Positions 20,448 to 58,260 of a stretch of 64,000 nucleotides of DNA are shown one piece after another. The translations under genes were made by a program, and so were the position numbers. The stretch's first letter is position 1. Each line of letters begins with the position of its first letter. The stretch spans positions 1-64,000 of the forward strand of contig CADCVH010000087.1 of the NCBI GenBank assembly GCA_902806085.1. The letters run 5' to 3'. This stretch comes from an uncultured Rubrobacteraceae bacterium. Lineage in GTDB: Bacteria > Actinomycetota > Rubrobacteria > Rubrobacterales > Rubrobacteraceae. The notes under the pieces are model-generated. The model was not told the DNA's origin. It worked only from the letters and a program-made list of their open reading frames with translations, and did no database searches.

Positions 20448-21241
20448 AAGCGACCTTGAGGTTAGCACACAAGAAAAGCCGGACCGCGCGAAATAATACA
20501 CGGCCCGGATCTCTCGCCTGGGCCAGGAAGGGGGAAGGGCCCAGTGACCGCAATATAGCCCCTCCGAATTACATCCCGGCTACTGATAGATAACAAACAG
20601 GTAACAGCCTTTCGGCACGCTCCGGCTTCGCCTGCGCTCTCAGTACGCTTCTGGCCGGCGGCCCTCGCATTGTGGGTTGTTATGGATCTTCCCAAATCGG
20701 GCCAGCAGTAGCGCAACGTACGGCTGCAGCTAGACCTGGCATAAACAGAGCGTCTCCCAACCGACCACGTGCCGGCAAGATATGCGCCGCAAGGAATATT
20801 GTGCGGACGGCGTTGCCACGGTAGCAATCTAGAGCACCTTCTTGCAGCGTAGTTGGGCGGCATGGCAGTATGCTCGCATGGACCGCTCAAGCAGACGGTT
20901 TACGCGTCTTTCCTCTCCCAGATCGGGGAGGAGGTCTCCTCCGCCGCCTCCGCGGGCGGCTTCGACGAGCCGTACGCGCTCCTGAACCACGATGTCTTGG
21001 CCCTGGACGAGGAGGGGGCTCTCGGCGACTGCGCAAGCTCCGATGGCCCTCTGCGGAGAGGGACCGACTCATAGATTGCAGCGCCGGCGCCCGGACGGAA
21101 CCCATCATGCACCGGGTCGTCAGACGAGCCGACCCCGAGCCGAGTGCGGATAGAAGCATAGCGCAAGGGCGCGAACGTCCGTGGCATCCGAAGCCGCCAC
21201 GTCGGCTTGACAAACACAACCTTCTCATAGAAGAAGGGAGG
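20448..21241. other. No gene supported; degraded sequence before an IS110 remnant
   Basis: ORFs on both strands here lack family signatures and usable ribosome binding sites, and base composition is more even than in the flanking genes. It probably consists of decayed mobile-element and intergenic DNA. Confidence 0.5.
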
Positions 21242-21760
21242 GCGCCCTGCTGGCCGTCACCAAGGTCGCGACGCCGGCTGGGGCCCGCGCCGGGCGAGGC
21301 CCGCCTGCGCCGGTGGCCCAAGGCAAGGGGAGCGCGCAAGTCCCAAGACCTCGCCGGGCGCATCATGGCGGCCGCCAAGGCCCAACTGCGCGAGCTGCCG
21401 GCCGCCGAGACCAAGTCCGCCCTCGCTGCGGAGCTCGCCTCCGAGATGCTGCGAACCAGGAAGCGCATCGCCGAGCTCGATCGGCGTCTCGAGGATTTGC
21501 TCGCCGCGGGCCCCGAGGCGCGGATCGTCAGCTGCTTGCCCGGCATGGGCGTCGTCTTCACGGCCGAGCTCCTGGCCGAGGCGGGCGACCTCGGGAGGTT
21601 CGCCTCCGCCAACTCCTTGGCCGCCGCGGCGGGGATCGCCCCGGTCTTGAGGGCATCGGCGGCCAGCCACCGGCGGAGGGCGAGGCGCGGCAACAAGGTC
21701 CTTGAGCGCGTCCTGTACCCACCGGTCCTACCGGGTGCCAAGCAACTTCGCGTAAGTTCA
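21242..21760 (+). pseudogene. IS110-family transposase, C-terminal remnant
   Basis: From about 21242 the sequence reads ALLAVTKVATPAGAR in one frame and then, after a shift near 21285, ARLRRWPKARGARKSQDLAG, SCLPGMGVVFTAELLAEAGD and LAAAAGIAPVLRAS. These match the transposase at 58.5 kb nearly in order, including the transposase_20 motif LPGMG. The N-terminal DEDD catalytic domain and the C-terminal end are missing. This copy keeps the AEAGDLGRFASAN segment that the 58.5-kb copy lacks. Confidence 0.8.
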
Positions 21761-21768
21761 GTTCTGTC

Positions 21769-21797
21769 GAAGTTCGCGCTGAGGGGTTCTAAGAAGT
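21769..21797 (+). repeat. Dispersed palindromic repeat, copy 1
   Basis: GAAGTTCGCGCTGAGGGG followed by TTCTAAGAAGTT. Related copies are at 23593, 26513, 27302, 56982 and 58222; see findings. Confidence 0.5.
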
Positions 21798-21798
21798 T

Positions 21799-21824
21799 AG
21801 GGGGCGCGGCCTAGCCGCGCCCCC
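21799..21824. terminator. Perfect GC hairpin
   Basis: GGGGGCGCGGC-CTA-GCCGCGCCCCC is a perfect 11-bp stem located 48 bp beyond the stop of the oxidoreductase gene at 21872 (minus strand), so it probably terminates that gene. Confidence 0.6.
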
Positions 21825-21871: not shown

Positions 21872-23311
21872 TCACGTTGCGGGGTTTGCAGACTGCGCAC
21901 CATCCGCGCCCTCGGCCGAAGACGGTGGGATGTTGCGGTTGTAGCGGAATAGGTTCCCCGGGTCGCGGCGGCCCTTCAGCTCCACCAGCCGCTCCCAGTC
22001 ATCCGCCGAGTAGGCCGCCTTCACGCGCTCGGGACTCGCGCCGTTGAGGTCCACGAAGTTCACGTAGGTCGCGCCGGTCGCGTGGGGCTTGGCCGCCTCG
22101 GCGACGTGGGCGAGGTACGCCTGCACCGCCTGGGCCATCTCCGGGGTGAAGGTGGCTCCGATCCCGTTCATGGCGTACGCGGCGTCGCTGCGGCCCATGG
22201 GGTTAAGGTCCGCGGGCGGGCGCGAGAGGGCGCCGCCCAGCTGGCGCATCTCCAGCAACAGCAAGGGCGTGTCGGAGCCCGAGCCCGCCAGGTCCACGAG
22301 CGTCCGGCGGGTCTCCCGCGAGAGCTCGCGCAGCATCTCGGAGTGGCCGTAGGCCCCGATCGGGTCCACGGGGTCCATACTGATCATGTCCATGGCCTCG
22401 TACGGCATCACCCCGAAGGTGTCCATGATGGGCTCGCCGAACCCGCGCCACGGGCCGAGCAACTCCTCGCCCTTCTCGGCGAGGTCCTCGCCCGTGTAGC
22501 AGAACCTCACGGTAATCACGGACCGCCCGCGCAAAGGCTCCGGGACGTCCGGGATCGGCGGGACGTTGAGGAAGGCCACCGCGGAGGTCACCTCCTCCGG
22601 CAGGTCCTCGGCCCAGCGGCTGTAGAGCTCCAGGACCTCCTCGGCCCTCTCGACGGGGTAGAAGAGGTTGCCCCCGAAGACGTGCGTCACGGGGTAGAGG
22701 GCGAACTCCAGGGAGGTGACGATGCCGAAGTTGCCCCCGCCGCCCTTCAGACCCCAGAAGAGGTCCGCGTTCTCGTGGGCGTTGGCCTTGACGAGCTCGC
22801 CCTCGGCGGTCACCACGTCGGCCTCCTTGACGGAGTCGGCGGCGAAGCCGTACTTGCGCCCGAGCCAGCCGAAACCGCCGCCCATGGTGTAGCCGACCAC
22901 GCCGACGTGGGAGGTCGAGCCCTGCAGGCCCGCCAGCCCGTGCGTCGCGGCCTCCGGGACGAGGTCGGCCCACTTCGCGCCGGCCCCGACCCGGGCGGCA
23001 CTCGTATCGGGGTCCACGCGCACGCCTCTCATGCGCGAGGTGTTGATCAGAACGCCGCCGTCGCAGGGGGCGGCGACGCCGTGGCCGGTTGCCATCACCC
23101 CGACGCCGAGTCCTTCGTCGCGCGCCAGACGCACCGCGGCAAGCACGTCCGAGGCGCCCTCGGCCATGACGACGAGCGCGGGGTGCTGGTGGGCGTTGAG
23201 GTTCCACGCGGCGCGGGCCTCGTCGTAACCCCCGTCGCCAGGGGTGTAGGCGTCGCCCTTCAGCCCGCCCTTAAGAGCTTCCAGCGCCGACCCGCCGAGC
23301 GTCGTCTCCAT
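21872..23311 (-). CDS. FAD-binding oxidoreductase, BBE (berberine-bridge) type
   Basis: The 479-residue protein has a PCMH FAD domain (ATGHGVAAPCDGGVLINTSRM near 75-95, then STSHVGVVGYTMGGGFGWLGRKYG) and a C-terminal BBE motif NLFRYNRNIPP. GGGGNFGIVTSLEFALYPV is the usual flavin-contact segment. The family oxidises sugars, alkaloids or related alcohols. The residue pattern RxxGH-C for bicovalent FAD is not fully conserved. No secretion signal is seen. It stands alone, next to an AraC regulator that could control it. Confidence 0.85.
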   Translation of the reverse strand: METTLGGSALEALKGGLKGDAYTPGDGGYDEARAAWNLNAHQHPALVVMAEGASDVLAAVRLARDEGLGVGVMATGHGVAAPCDGGVLINTSRMRGVRVDPDTSAARVGAGAKWADLVPEAATHGLAGLQGSTSHVGVVGYTMGGGFGWLGRKYGFAADSVKEADVVTAEGELVKANAHENADLFWGLKGGGGNFGIVTSLEFALYPVTHVFGGNLFYPVERAEEVLELYSRWAEDLPEEVTSAVAFLNVPPIPDVPEPLRGRSVITVRFCYTGEDLAEKGEELLGPWRGFGEPIMDTFGVMPYEAMDMISMDPVDPIGAYGHSEMLRELSRETRRTLVDLAGSGSDTPLLLLEMRQLGGALSRPPADLNPMGRSDAAYAMNGIGATFTPEMAQAVQAYLAHVAEAAKPHATGATYVNFVDLNGASPERVKAAYSADDWERLVELKGRRDPGNLFRYNRNIPPSSAEGADGAQSANPAT

Positions 23312-23478
23312 CGATGGTCTCCTCCTGCTGAGCGGCCACGGCGTGGCTCATCGACCCGTACTATTGTCTGTCGGAGGAATTTTGACCCCCGGTAGGTAGG
23401 CACGCATCCCCTAAATCCGTCACAACAGTAGTGATCGTCTCATGGGGAGCTTCCTCCTCGTCTATGTCTCTGCACCCC

Positions 23479-23577
23479 GAATTATCCGGCGGCGAAGGGC
23501 GGAACGGCTAACAGGATCTTGCCGTCGGTGTGCGGGATCTTGCCCTTCTTCGAGAAAACCTGTGGAGGCGGGGGCGC
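23479..23577 (+). repeat. Left arm of ~100-bp inverted repeat around araC-like gene
   Basis: This 99-bp segment begins GAATTATCCGGCGGCG and ends GGCGGGGGCGC. Its reverse complement matches 24722-24821 almost base for base. It contains two reading-frame-neutral copies of the word AGATCTTGCC-like core (complement GGCAAGATCC) 11 bp apart. Confidence 0.85.
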
Positions 23578-23592
23578 TAGCGGGGTATAGCG

Positions 23593-23620
23593 AACTTCTT
23601 AGAACCCTCAGGCCGAAGTA
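23593..23620 (-). repeat. Dispersed palindromic repeat, copy 2
   Basis: On the minus strand this reads TACTTCGGCCTGAGGG then TTCTAAGAAGTT, matching the other copies. Further similarity extends rightward through 23680. Confidence 0.45.
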
Positions 23621-23802
23621 CGGGGAATCGCCCTTCCACGCACTTCGCCCCGAAAGGGTTGTCGGAAGTTCGCCTAGGGAAGTGCAAACCTGGTCCATTT
23701 GGGGGATGCGTCCCGCCCCGGCGTGCTCGACACTAATGGGGCTATGGCCGCACGGGGCGCGGGCCTTTTCCGTTCTTCCTCCGCCCCGCCGAAAGAAGGG
23801 TG

Positions 23803-24711
23803 ATGGGGATGGGGCCAGCGGCCAGCGCGTCCGCCAACCTGCGCGGGGGACGTCCGGAAACGCCGGTACTAGAAGCGAGGGAACTCGCGGTCTTCGGCGC
23901 GATCGAGGTGGGGCACCTCCGTCTCCATGCCGGGGAGGTCGAGCTCCTGCCCTTCGACGGGCACCTGGTCAACGTGCACCTGGGCGTCCCGAACCACGCG
24001 GTGCAGCGGCGCAACGGACGGACGCACGGGGGGATCAGGATCACGGGCGCCGTCGACGTCATGCCCGCGGGCACGCCGGCCTACTTCCGCATGGAAGCGG
24101 CGTCCGAGCACGCGTGCATGCTCATCGCGGACCGTTTCGTCCGGCGGGTGGCCCGAGAGGCGGGGGCCGACCCGGATAGCTTCGAGGTCGCGCCCTTCTT
24201 CGACGCCCCCGACCCGCACATCGAGCGCGTCGGGATGTCGCTGCTTTCCGAGATGAAGACCCGGGGCCTCGGGGGCGAGCTCTTCGCCGAGTCGCTGGCC
24301 AACGTGCTGGCGCTGCACCTCCTGCGCAGCCACTCCTCTCTGGGACGCGCCTCCAGGCGGAGGGTCGGGAGCGAAGGCGGCGGCTACTCCGGACGGTCGC
24401 TGGGGCGGGCCACCGACTACATAAACGACAACCTCTCGCGAAAGCTGACGCTTGCGGAGATAGCGGGGGCGGCGCGCATGAGCCCCCACCACTTCGCGCG
24501 CTCGTTCAAGAAGGACACCGGCCTCTCGCCGCACCGGTACGTCGTCCAAAGGCGCGTGGAGCGGGCGAAGGCGCTGCTCGCCAACACCGACCTCACCGTC
24601 TTCGAGGTCGCGAAGGCCGTGGGCTTCGCCAACCACAGCCACCTCTCCTCCCACGTCAGGCGCCTGCTCGGCGTCTCCCCGGGGGCCCTGCGCCGGGACG
24701 GTGCGCGCTAG
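23803..24711 (+). CDS. AraC-family transcriptional regulator
   Basis: The C-terminal ~100 of 302 residues form an AraC/XylS double HTH: RKLTLAEIAGAARMSPHHFA, FKKDTGLSPHRYV and VFEVAKAVGFANHSHLSSHV. The N-terminal ~170 residues resemble cupin-like sensing domains. ATG 23803 is chosen over GTG 23800 because GAAGG sits just upstream. The gene is enclosed by ~100-bp inverted repeats whose arms lie about 225 bp before the start and 11 bp after the stop. Recombination between the arms would invert the gene. Confidence 0.88.
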   Translation: MGMGPAASASANLRGGRPETPVLEARELAVFGAIEVGHLRLHAGEVELLPFDGHLVNVHLGVPNHAVQRRNGRTHGGIRITGAVDVMPAGTPAYFRMEAASEHACMLIADRFVRRVAREAGADPDSFEVAPFFDAPDPHIERVGMSLLSEMKTRGLGGELFAESLANVLALHLLRSHSSLGRASRRRVGSEGGGYSGRSLGRATDYINDNLSRKLTLAEIAGAARMSPHHFARSFKKDTGLSPHRYVVQRRVERAKALLANTDLTVFEVAKAVGFANHSHLSSHVRRLLGVSPGALRRDGAR

Positions 24712-24721
24712 CGGGGCGCCG

Positions 24722-24821
24722 GCGCCCCCGTCTGCGTAGGTTTTTCTCCGAGAAGGGCAAGATCCCGCACACCGACGGCAAGATCCTGTTAGCCGTTCCG
24801 CCCCCCGCCGCCGGATAATTC
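24722..24821 (-). repeat. Right arm of ~100-bp inverted repeat around araC-like gene
   Basis: It starts GCGCCCCCGTCTGCG, ends GCCGCCGGATAATTC, and is the reverse complement of 23479-23577 with about ten mismatches and one indel. The inner end starts 11 bp after the AraC stop codon. Confidence 0.85.
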
Positions 24822-24946
24822 GCAACGGCAAAGATACGCGCTTTGGGGGATACGCTTCTCCCGGTTGGCGAGCAGGATGCCAGTGTCACTGATGCACACC
24901 AGGCGGGGCGGTGAAGGCTCTCTCCCTTCCTCAACGAGAAGGGAAG

Positions 24947-26419
24947 ATGGGCATGAGCGGAGCAAGGAACCTCAAGGCACGGGCGGCGCTTCCGATGGCG
25001 GCCCTGGCGGCAAGTGTGCTAATGGCGGTGGTGCTTGCCGCCCCGGCGCAGGCCGCACCCTTCTCCGTTACCAACACGGCCGATTCCGGGGAAGGCTCCC
25101 TGCGTCAGGCGATGAGTGATGCCAACGCCAGCGCCGGCGAGGACACGATCAACTTCGACCCCTCCCTCTCGCGGCAGACCATCACGCTGGGCTCGCAGTT
25201 GGCCGTGGCCGATAGCGCGGGGCTTACCATCGACGGCGGCAGCGCCAATATCACCGTAAGCGGCAACGATGCCGTGCGGGTGTTCGAGGTACGCAGCGGC
25301 GCAAAGCTCGCCCTGAACAACCTTACGGTGGCCAACGGCAGAGGCGCCGCTGGTGGCGGCATAGCCAACCTGGGCACGCTCACGGTTACCGACTCCACCC
25401 TCTCGGGCAATAGCGCCAACTACTCCGGCGGCGGCGGCATATGGAACAACGGTGGCACGGTCACGGTTGCCAACTCCACCCTCTCCGGCAATAGTTCCAC
25501 CTGGCACGGCGGCGGCATATACAATTGGAACGGTGGCACGCTCACGGTTGCCAACTCCACCCTCTCGGGCAATAGCGTCACCGACTTAGACTACGCCAGC
25601 GGCGGCGGCATAGCGAGCTATGGTGGCACGCTAACGGTTACCAATTCCACCCTCTCGGGCAATAGCGCCGGCGCCGGCAGAGGCGGCGGCATAGAGAGCT
25701 ATGGTGGCAGCGCTACGCTCAAGAACACGATCGTGGCCAACAGCCCTTCGGGCGGGAATTGTTCCGTGACCGTTACCAACGGCGGCCACAACCTCGACTC
25801 GGACGGTAGCTGCGGCTCTGGCACGGCCAACAACTCCATCTCCGGTACCACGGATAAACCTCTGGACCCCAAGCTCGGCGCCCTCGCCGACAACGGCGGC
25901 CCCACAAAGACCCATGCCTTGCTGGAGGGCAGCCCGGCTATAAACAAGGGTAACTCCTTCGGGGCAACCACCGACCAGCGCGGTGTTTCGCGCCCGCAGG
26001 GGGCGGCCTCAGACATCGGCGCCTTCGAGTCCGAGTCCACCGTAGTCGAGGACACCGTTAAGCCAAGGGTTAGCGCCGCGACGCCCGCCGGAACGGGCAT
26101 CGGGCGTGGCACCAACGTCGCGGCCACCTTCTCGGAGAAGATGAGCCCCACCTCGATCACCAAGTCCACCTTCAAGCTCTTCAAGGTCACCTCCAGCGGG
26201 ACAACGCAGGTCACCAACGTGACGGTGACGCCCAGCTCGGACGGCCTGAAGGCCACGCTCAACCCGTTCGGGACGTCCTCGACCTTGCTCTCCTCGAGGA
26301 CCAAGTACAAGGCAGTGGTGACCACGGGGGCGAAGGACCTGGCGGGAAACGCGCTGGATCAGAACCCCACGACCACCGGCAACCAGCAGAAGGCGTGGAC
26401 CTTCACCACGGGAAGCTAA
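24947..26419 (+). CDS. Secreted parallel beta-helix protein with C-terminal Ig-like domain
   Basis: A long signal peptide (ALPMAALAASVLMAVVLAAP, cut after AQAA) leads to SVTNTADSGEGSLRQAM, the common start of CSLREA-type polymorphic outer proteins. Residues ~110-260 are a right-handed beta-helix with repeated LTVTNSTLSGNSA-GGGI coils, about 25-35 residues each. Residues ~370-490 form a bacterial Ig-like domain (VAATFSEKMSPTSITKSTF). It has no sortase motif, so it is probably released or loosely bound. A strong terminator follows. ATG 24947 has a GAGAAGGGAAG site; upstream GTG 24911 is less likely. Confidence 0.8.
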   Translation: MGMSGARNLKARAALPMAALAASVLMAVVLAAPAQAAPFSVTNTADSGEGSLRQAMSDANASAGEDTINFDPSLSRQTITLGSQLAVADSAGLTIDGGSANITVSGNDAVRVFEVRSGAKLALNNLTVANGRGAAGGGIANLGTLTVTDSTLSGNSANYSGGGGIWNNGGTVTVANSTLSGNSSTWHGGGIYNWNGGTLTVANSTLSGNSVTDLDYASGGGIASYGGTLTVTNSTLSGNSAGAGRGGGIESYGGSATLKNTIVANSPSGGNCSVTVTNGGHNLDSDGSCGSGTANNSISGTTDKPLDPKLGALADNGGPTKTHALLEGSPAINKGNSFGATTDQRGVSRPQGAASDIGAFESESTVVEDTVKPRVSAATPAGTGIGRGTNVAATFSEKMSPTSITKSTFKLFKVTSSGTTQVTNVTVTPSSDGLKATLNPFGTSSTLLSSRTKYKAVVTTGAKDLAGNALDQNPTTTGNQQKAWTFTTGS

Positions 26420-26439: not shown

Positions 26440-26470
26440 GGAGGGCCGGGGCACGATGCTCCGGCCCTCC
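26440..26470 (+). terminator. Terminator after the beta-helix gene
   Basis: GGAGGGCCGG at 26440-26449 pairs perfectly with CCGGCCCTCC at 26461-26470 around an 11-nt loop, 20 bp after the stop codon. Confidence 0.75.
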
Positions 26471-26512
26471 CTCTTGCCCCTTATTCACCGGAGTGCGTGG
26501 AAGGAGTTTCTC

Positions 26513-26543
26513 GGAACTTCGGGCGTAGGGGGTTCTAGGAAGT
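26513..26543 (+). repeat. Dispersed palindromic repeat, copy 3
   Basis: GGAACTTCGGGCGTAGGG then GGTTCTAGGAAGT. It is preceded at 26481 by TTATTCACCGGAGTGCGTGG, a leader also seen at 27929. Confidence 0.5.
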
Positions 26544-26557
26544 GCGGGACGCGGGAA

Positions 26558-27074: not shown

Positions 27075-27494
27075 GTCGTGCCCCTTTCGGTCTGTGACCC
27101 CCGGCCTCCCCGGGCGCCTTTGTCCTGCACTCTGGGGCGCCGGGGCGGGTGGGGTATCACGCAAATGCACTAGATCGGCGGGCCGTTACCGAACCGTCGC
27201 GGGGCTGTGGCCGGTTTGCCGCCGGACCGTTACCGTTCCGGAACATCGGGCGGCGCATCGGGCCGAGGTCACGCCCCGTCCACCCCCTCAGAACCCTTCA
27301 CGGAACTTCGGTCGCAGGGGGTTCTAAGAAGTTACGATGTTCGCGTCCGTGCGCACCCGCTTTGCGACGCTAGTGCCTAGTCATTCGGGGTGAGGAAAAG
27401 ATCCCCCATCGGGGCGATGCTTCGGGGGTCGTTTGGGGACTACAGTTGACCCAGTGCCGGGACGTACCCGACCGAGAAGCGAAGGGGCGGGCTG
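27075..27494. other. Intergenic region with hairpins and one dispersed repeat
   Basis: No gene is supported. It contains a CCGTTACCGAACC and GACCGTTACCGTTCCGGAAC pair of similar words at 27184-27243 and dispersed repeat copy 4. A promoter for the small genes at 27.5 kb is likely but not identified. Confidence 0.4.
27302..27332 (+). repeat. Dispersed palindromic repeat, copy 4
   Basis: GGAACTTCGGTCGCAGGGG then GTTCTAAGAAGT. An upstream AGAACCC at 27290-27296 can pair with the GGGTTCT within it. Confidence 0.55.
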
Positions 27495-28618: not shown

Positions 28619-29286
28619 TCAAAGTACCGCGTTGGCGAGCCTGCGCAGCATGATGCGGCTCATCGCCCACTGGATCATCGCCACCCCGGTCTCCGGCAGC
28701 CTCTCGTAGTCCTTCGCCAGCCGCCGAGCCTGACCCAGCCAGGCGAACGTCCTCTCCACCACCCAGCGCCTCGGCAGCACCGGGAACCCGCGGGGTTTCT
28801 CCCCCGGGCCGTAGCGCCAGAGCTGGCGGTCCGGGCGCCGGGGCACCTCCACCCGCCATCCCCGCTCCTGTTCGGCCCACTCTCGGAAGGTCCTCGTGTA
28901 GGCTCCGTCGGCCCAGACGAGTTCCATCCTTGGCAAATCCTCCCTCGGCTCGTCGGTCAGGAGCCTTTGCGCGCCGTCGCGGTCGTGGAGGCTGGCCGCG
29001 TGGACGAGAGCGCCCAGCACGAGCCCGCCGGTGTCCACCAGCAGGTGGCGTTTCCTTCCCAAGAGGCGCTTGGCCCCGTCGTAGCCCCGCTCGGGTCCTC
29101 CCACGCCGGTCCCCCTGACCGCCTGGCTGTCGATCACCGACGCGCTCGGGTCGCGGTCGCGCCCTTCCGACCGGCGCACCGCTTCACGAAGCCGGTCGTG
29201 GGCCCGCCTCAGCCGCCCGTCCCGGCGCCACTGGTCCAAGGTCCAGACTCTCAGCGGTAGCAGCAGTTCGAGGGCCCGCGAAGGGC
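28619..29286 (-). pseudogene. IS5-family transposase, 5'-truncated
   Basis: The minus-strand frame contains SASVIDSQAVRGTG (first catalytic Asp), GYDGAKRLLGRKRHLLVDT, ELVWADGAYTRTFREW (second Asp) and RRWVVERTFAWLGQARRLAKDYERLPET (catalytic Glu), all DDE_Tnp_1 landmarks of the IS5 group. The first ~70 residues normally beginning with a D-EEW motif are missing and the frame runs into the PP2C region. The truncated copy should be inactive. Confidence 0.8.
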
Positions 29287-29372
29287 GGGGCCGAAGGAGG
29301 TAAGAGCGTGGAGAAGAGGGATGTCCACGGAATACGGCACCGGGGCTGGAACAGGGCCCTTGCGAGGGTGGC

Positions 29373-30196
<824 letters not shown>

Positions 30197-58221: not shown

Positions 58222-58260
58222 AAGGAACTGCCGAGAACCCCCTCGGCCCGAAGTTCCCGG
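58222..58260 (-). repeat. Dispersed palindromic repeat, copy 6
   Basis: The minus strand reads GGGAACTTCGGGCCGAGGGG then GTTCTCGGCAGTTCC, close to the consensus of the other copies. Confidence 0.5.

What the first reader, a model, noticed from the sequence alone, without database searches (positions are those of the whole stretch)
23479..24821. AraC regulator enclosed in ~100-bp inverted repeats
Two arms of 99 and 100 bp match with about ten differences and bracket only the regulator gene and its upstream region. Each arm carries two copies of GGCAAGATCC. Such long intact arms imply a recent duplication, a non-autonomous mobile unit or an invertible switch that flips the regulator relative to its surroundings.
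Basis: partly seen in the sequence, partly recalled or inferred. Interest (0 to 1): 0.66.

Follow-up and report, generated by a model that had tools for sequence, protein, structure and literature searches.

The report
Duplicated AraC-dependent promoter flanking its regulator
The two inverted repeats around this regulator gene are most likely two copies of the regulator's own target promoter, pointing outwards at the neighbouring genes on each side; one copy is a recent addition that appears to have recruited a new gene, so this is ordinary gene control and not a flipping DNA switch.

Summary
The inverted repeat is real: arms at 23478-23577 and 24722-24822, 9 differences in 101 columns. It is best read as two outward-facing copies of one AraC/XylS-type operator-promoter. 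Each arm holds two half-sites, GGCAAGATCC, repeated every 21 bp. A GGATAATTC -10 box follows, placing the half-sites at about -70..-56 and -49..-35, the register published for XylS/Pm-type promoters such as CphR's. The right arm is ancestral: 13 of 18 homologues of this regulator in Rubrobacteraceae relatives carry a comparable tandem repeat within 150 nt downstream of their stop codon. In 15 of 16 such sites a -10-like box lies at the same distance (0.11 expected). The left arm is an extra copy not found in relatives. It keeps what looks like araC stop-codon sequence and faces an FAD-dependent oxidoreductase whose homologues lack the operator. A third copy lies alone on another contig. No evidence supports a switch or a mobile unit: there is no recombinase beside the unit, and inversion would recreate the same two outward promoters. 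DNA binding, activation and the inducer are inferred, not shown. Novelty is modest: a new member of a known kind, with a clear case of promoter duplication.

The parts
24722..24822 (+). right arm: AraC/XylS-type operator-promoter facing right, ancestral position just downstream of araC
   Evidence: comparable site downstream of most araC homologues
24756..24765 (+). distal half-site GGCAAGATCC (about -70..-56 as a 15-mer)
24777..24786 (+). proximal half-site GGCAAGATCC (15-mer GGCAAGATCCTGTTA, about -49..-35)
24813..24821 (+). -10-like box GGATAATTC (GATAAT hexamer 24814-24819)
23478..23577 (-). left arm: extra inverted copy of the same operator-promoter facing left, apparently carrying former araC stop-codon sequence (CTAGCGCCCCC) at its inner end
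23535..23544 (-). distal half-site of left arm
23514..23523 (-). proximal half-site of left arm
23479..23487 (-). -10-like box GGATAATTC of left arm
23800..24711 (+). AraC-family regulator, 303 aa, C-terminal double HTH; presumed to bind both arms
21872..23311 (-). FAD-binding/BBE oxidoreductase (BagK/FevA1-like), presumed new target of the left arm
24911..26419 (+). secreted repeat protein with choice-of-anchor Q and Big_5 domains (start probably ATG 24947), presumed target of the right arm
23697..23710 (+). second conserved box (ATTTGGGGGATGCG) upstream of araC, likely an element of its own promoter
23403..23416 (-). same box upstream of the oxidoreductase, conserved in its closer homologues
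24842..24854 (+). variant of the same box upstream of the secreted protein

Best explanation
Each arm is one copy of a promoter controlled by the enclosed AraC-family regulator. A regulator dimer would bind the two tandem half-sites (period 21 bp, about -70..-56 and -49..-35) and recruit RNA polymerase to a promoter that has a -10 box but no recognisable -35, as XylS does at Pm. The right arm is the ancestral site downstream of araC and should activate the secreted repeat protein at 24911. The left arm is an inverted duplicate of an araC downstream region. Its -10 box lies 167 nt upstream of the FAD-dependent oxidoreductase start, and it should place that gene under the same regulator on top of its older promoter. 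Shown here: the repeats, their conservation and geometry, their position next to araC homologues, and the absence of the left arm in relatives. Inferred: binding, activation rather than repression, the inducer, and how the copy arose.
For: 13 of 18 regulator homologues (39-100% identity, own gene included) have a GCAAGAWYC tandem repeat of period 20-21 with at most 3 mismatches in 18 within 150 nt after their stop codon; shuffled sequence reaches this in 0.08%. Four distant AraC paralogues of the same genome do not. A -10-like hexamer starts 36-37 nt from the proximal half-site in 15 of 16 rows, 0.11 expected. A profile of the site gives 13 hits at E up to 1.4e-5, all in genomes that encode this regulator; 10 directly follow an araC homologue or its remnant. 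Genes follow the sites: SDR dehydrogenases 39-42 nt on, SnoaL-like proteins, secreted repeat proteins. The register matches CphR in Rhodococcus (-35..-49 and -55..-69, PMC6205950) and the two 15-bp XylS repeats at Pm (PMC5481539). Nine homologues of the oxidoreductase (39-89% identity) lack the operator upstream, and the closest allele aligns up to window 23416 and stops before the arm.
Against: No binding or expression data. The distal half-site in this genome matches little beyond box A of the XylS consensus. Of the five homologues that fail the test, one has 4 mismatches, one has a single half-site with the -10 box, two have the site 0.5 and 1.4 kb away, and one has none. Orthologous loci are not independent, and the motif was partly defined from loci in the test set. 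The arms are 95% alike over 81 nt including spacer positions, more than function alone demands, so recent copying must be assumed as well.
Confidence: 0.82

Rival explanations
1. The arms are operators at which the regulator represses the outward promoters, with activation by another factor at the second box (ATTTGGGGGATGCG).
For: A second conserved box lies near each of the three genes, so the genes may not need AraC for expression. Some AraC proteins also repress (general knowledge).
Against: The proximal half-site ends at about -35 and the promoter has no recognisable -35 hexamer, the usual layout of activation; the register equals that of the activated promoters Pm and PcphA2A1.
Confidence: 0.12
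2. The segment 23578-24721 is an invertible switch that flips the regulator by recombination between the arms.
For: Long, well-matched inverted arms; homologous recombination between them is physically possible.
Against: No recombinase lies beside the unit; in the nearby IS110-type ORF only the C-terminal domain was detected. Relatives have the right-hand copy only. Flipping restores near-identical outward promoters, so it gives no on/off change for the flanking genes. Only one orientation is in the assembly.
Confidence: 0.03
3. The unit is a non-autonomous mobile element whose arms are terminal inverted repeats.
For: A third arm on contig C68 and a 99% partial copy of araC on contig C110 show that pieces of the unit have been copied.
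Against: The C68 arm has no partner and no araC; the C110 copy starts at window 23657, inside the unit, without the left arm; in relatives the right-hand copy alone is conserved in place downstream of araC.
Confidence: 0.05
4. The arms encode a structured RNA or transcription terminators.
For: Position between genes.
Against: Folding is no better than shuffles (z 0.3 to 0.8), no terminator-like site, no Rfam match; the conserved parts are direct repeats.
Confidence: 0.02

Closest known systems
XylS/Pm of the TOL plasmid (two 15-bp direct repeats, box A TGCA, 6 bp, box B GGTA)
   Same: Tandem half-sites ending at about -35, box A-like GGCA and, in the proximal site, box B-like TGTTA; -10 without recognisable -35; AraC-family regulator
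   Different: Half-site sequence differs (distal box B not matched); inducer unknown; the site is duplicated as an inverted outward pair around the regulator gene
CphR/PcphA2A1 of Rhodococcus sp. YH-5B (TGCA-N6-GGNTA at -35..-49 and -55..-69)
   Same: Same register relative to the start site; actinobacterial AraC/XylS-type regulator next to an oxidative enzyme gene
   Different: Single site between regulator and target; sequence and targets differ
AraC araI1-I2 at PBAD (from general knowledge)
   Same: Direct-repeat half-sites next to -35 bound by an AraC-family activator
   Different: No looping site identified here; different half-site sequence

Membership tests
AraC/XylS family regulator | C-terminal double helix-turn-helix DNA-binding domain | tested here: met
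   PF12833 5e-23 and PF00165 6e-18; closest solved chains are AraC-type domains; the C-terminal helices model well
AraC/XylS class II activated promoter | Two direct-repeat half-sites with 20-21 bp period | tested here: met
AraC/XylS class II activated promoter | Proximal half-site overlaps or abuts -35, fixed distance to -10 | tested here: met
   15 of 16 sites at 36-37 nt, shuffle expectation 0.11
AraC/XylS class II activated promoter | Regulator binds the repeats and activates transcription | not testable with these tools
   needs footprinting and expression assays
XylS binding consensus TGCA-N6-GGNTA | Sequence match of both half-sites | tested here: inconclusive
   proximal site matches 6 of 8 fixed positions, distal 4 of 8 (read from the sequence)
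Invertible DNA switch | Dedicated recombinase or evidence of both orientations | tested here: not met
   No intact recombinase beside the unit; one orientation in own assembly; no left arm in relatives. Reads were not available.
MITE or transposon with terminal inverted repeats | Whole two-armed copies at several sites | tested here: not met
   Only a solo arm elsewhere in the genome; none of the other genomes searched has a two-armed copy

The most novel reading that the evidence does not exclude
The araC downstream promoter is a portable module that has repeatedly been copied as a unit of about 100 bp (left arm, C68) and so captures new genes into a local regulator's control, with the dispersed R2 repeats or recombination between arms as the vehicle.
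Probability: 0.2. Interest if true: 0.5.

Novelty: new member of a known kind. Interest (0 to 1): 0.33.

Why it matters
It gives a testable operator for an uncharacterised AraC subfamily of Rubrobacteraceae and a clean recent example of regulatory evolution: a promoter copy, with the pre-duplication state visible in relatives, placed in front of a new gene. It also warns that long inverted repeats around a regulator can be duplicated promoters and not switches.

Tried and rejected
Inversion switch and mobile unit (see rivals). Structured RNA or terminator: folding, terminator scan and Rfam all negative. A standard sigma-70 promoter with -35: none found, consistent with activator dependence. 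Integron attC for the separate R2 repeat: no integron integrase over the cut-off in the genome. A search of papers for the half-site string listed only unrelated texts, and none joins Rubrobacter with an AraC-family operator. The structure model is confident only for the DNA-binding domain (mean pLDDT 48), so the sensor domain was not interpreted. The reversed-motif control also reached 3 mismatches or fewer in 4 of 18, because GCAAGAACG is nearly symmetric; the shuffle control is the one used.

Full report
Observation. The inverted repeat is real. Local alignment gives arms at 23478-23577 and 24722-24822 with 8 mismatches and 1 gap, with an 81-nt core at 95%. GGCAAGATCC occurs four times in the window, twice per arm. 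The arms enclose only an AraC-family gene, 23800-24711.

The arm elsewhere. In the genome of the window (4.41 Mb in 133 contigs) one further copy lies alone at C68:3700-3804, without araC. In relatives, diverged copies (71-75%) lie directly downstream of the araC orthologues of G005 and G015. Named records of such relatives are Rubrobacter or Rubrobacteraceae. No relative has an upstream inverted arm.

What it is. The alignment shows two half-sites GCAAGA(T/A)(C/T)C with a 20-21 bp period, then a -10-like box. Of 18 homologues of the regulator, own gene included, 13 carry such a tandem repeat with at most 3 mismatches within 150 nt after their stop codon, against 0.08% of shuffles. Six of those 13 helped define the motif; the other 7 did not. 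Two more homologues (C106, G006) have the site 0.5 and 1.4 kb away, in front of an SDR gene, so the site tracks the target gene. Distant AraC paralogues lack it. A -10-like hexamer starts 36-37 nt from the proximal half-site in 15 of 16 rows, expected 0.11. A sequence profile of the site finds 13 strong hits, all in genomes that encode the regulator, 10 of them directly after araC or its remnant. Open reading frames follow the sites: SDR, SnoaL-like, secreted repeat proteins and others. The arms show no RNA structure, terminator or Rfam match.

Mechanism. If GATAAT is the -10, the half-sites lie at about -70..-56 and -49..-35. CphR of Rhodococcus uses -69..-55 and -49..-35 (PMC6205950), and XylS binds two 15-bp direct repeats of box A and box B at Pm (PMC5481539). 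Binding to direct repeats is a property restricted to few regulators, most of them AraC family (abstract of PMC9723621). I conclude that each arm is an AraC-activated promoter facing outwards. Binding and activation are inferred.

History. The right arm is in the ancestral place. The left arm is new here: nine homologues of the oxidoreductase have no operator upstream, and the closest allele (G001, 88% over 1597 bp) aligns up to window 23416 and then diverges, before the arm. The left arm's inner end reads CTAGCGCCCCC, the araC stop-codon context of G005, so it probably derives from the 3' end of an araC gene; this rests on an 11-nt match and is moderate evidence. The closer oxidoreductase homologues share another box, CATTTGGGGGATGCG, which is also present before araC and, as a variant, before the secreted protein, so the arm seems to add a layer to an older promoter.

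Against the switch. No recombinase is adjacent, relatives lack the second arm, and inversion would place near-identical promoters outward again. Homologous recombination between arms cannot be excluded without reads.

Open point. Contig C110 begins with 283 bp that are 99.3% identical to window 23657-23939, including the first 46 codons of araC. It may be a second copy broken in assembly or a strain variant.

Noticed in passing
window 26470-26548, 27297-27332, 23591-23673, 58227-58257: A dispersed intergenic repeat (R2, about 65-79 bp, core GAACTTC-N18-GAAGTTC) has at least 40 matches in the genome, often clustered in one orientation on C24, C81, C46 and C4; no integron integrase over the cut-off was found.
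   Followed up: partly
window 23697-23710 (+), 23403-23416 (-), 24842-24854 (+); C65:28935, C94:21657 and 21839: A second conserved box ATTTGGGGGATGCG, followed in several cases by a -10-like sequence, precedes araC, the oxidoreductase and its closer homologues, and a few other places; its regulator is unknown.
   Followed up: partly
L013 (contig C110) 1-283: A 99.3% copy of the araC upstream region and first 46 codons at a contig end, without the left arm, on a contig with an ISL3-like transposase ORF; possible second araC copy.
   Followed up: partly
window 20870-21814 and 28619-29749: IS110-type (only C-terminal domain detected) and DDE_Tnp_1 transposase ORFs flank the region.
   Followed up: no
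L151 (G015:C197:9489-9545): A profile hit for the operator away from araC, about 210 nt before an ORF that looks like a cyclic-nucleotide-binding protein at a contig end; possible further regulon member.
   Followed up: no
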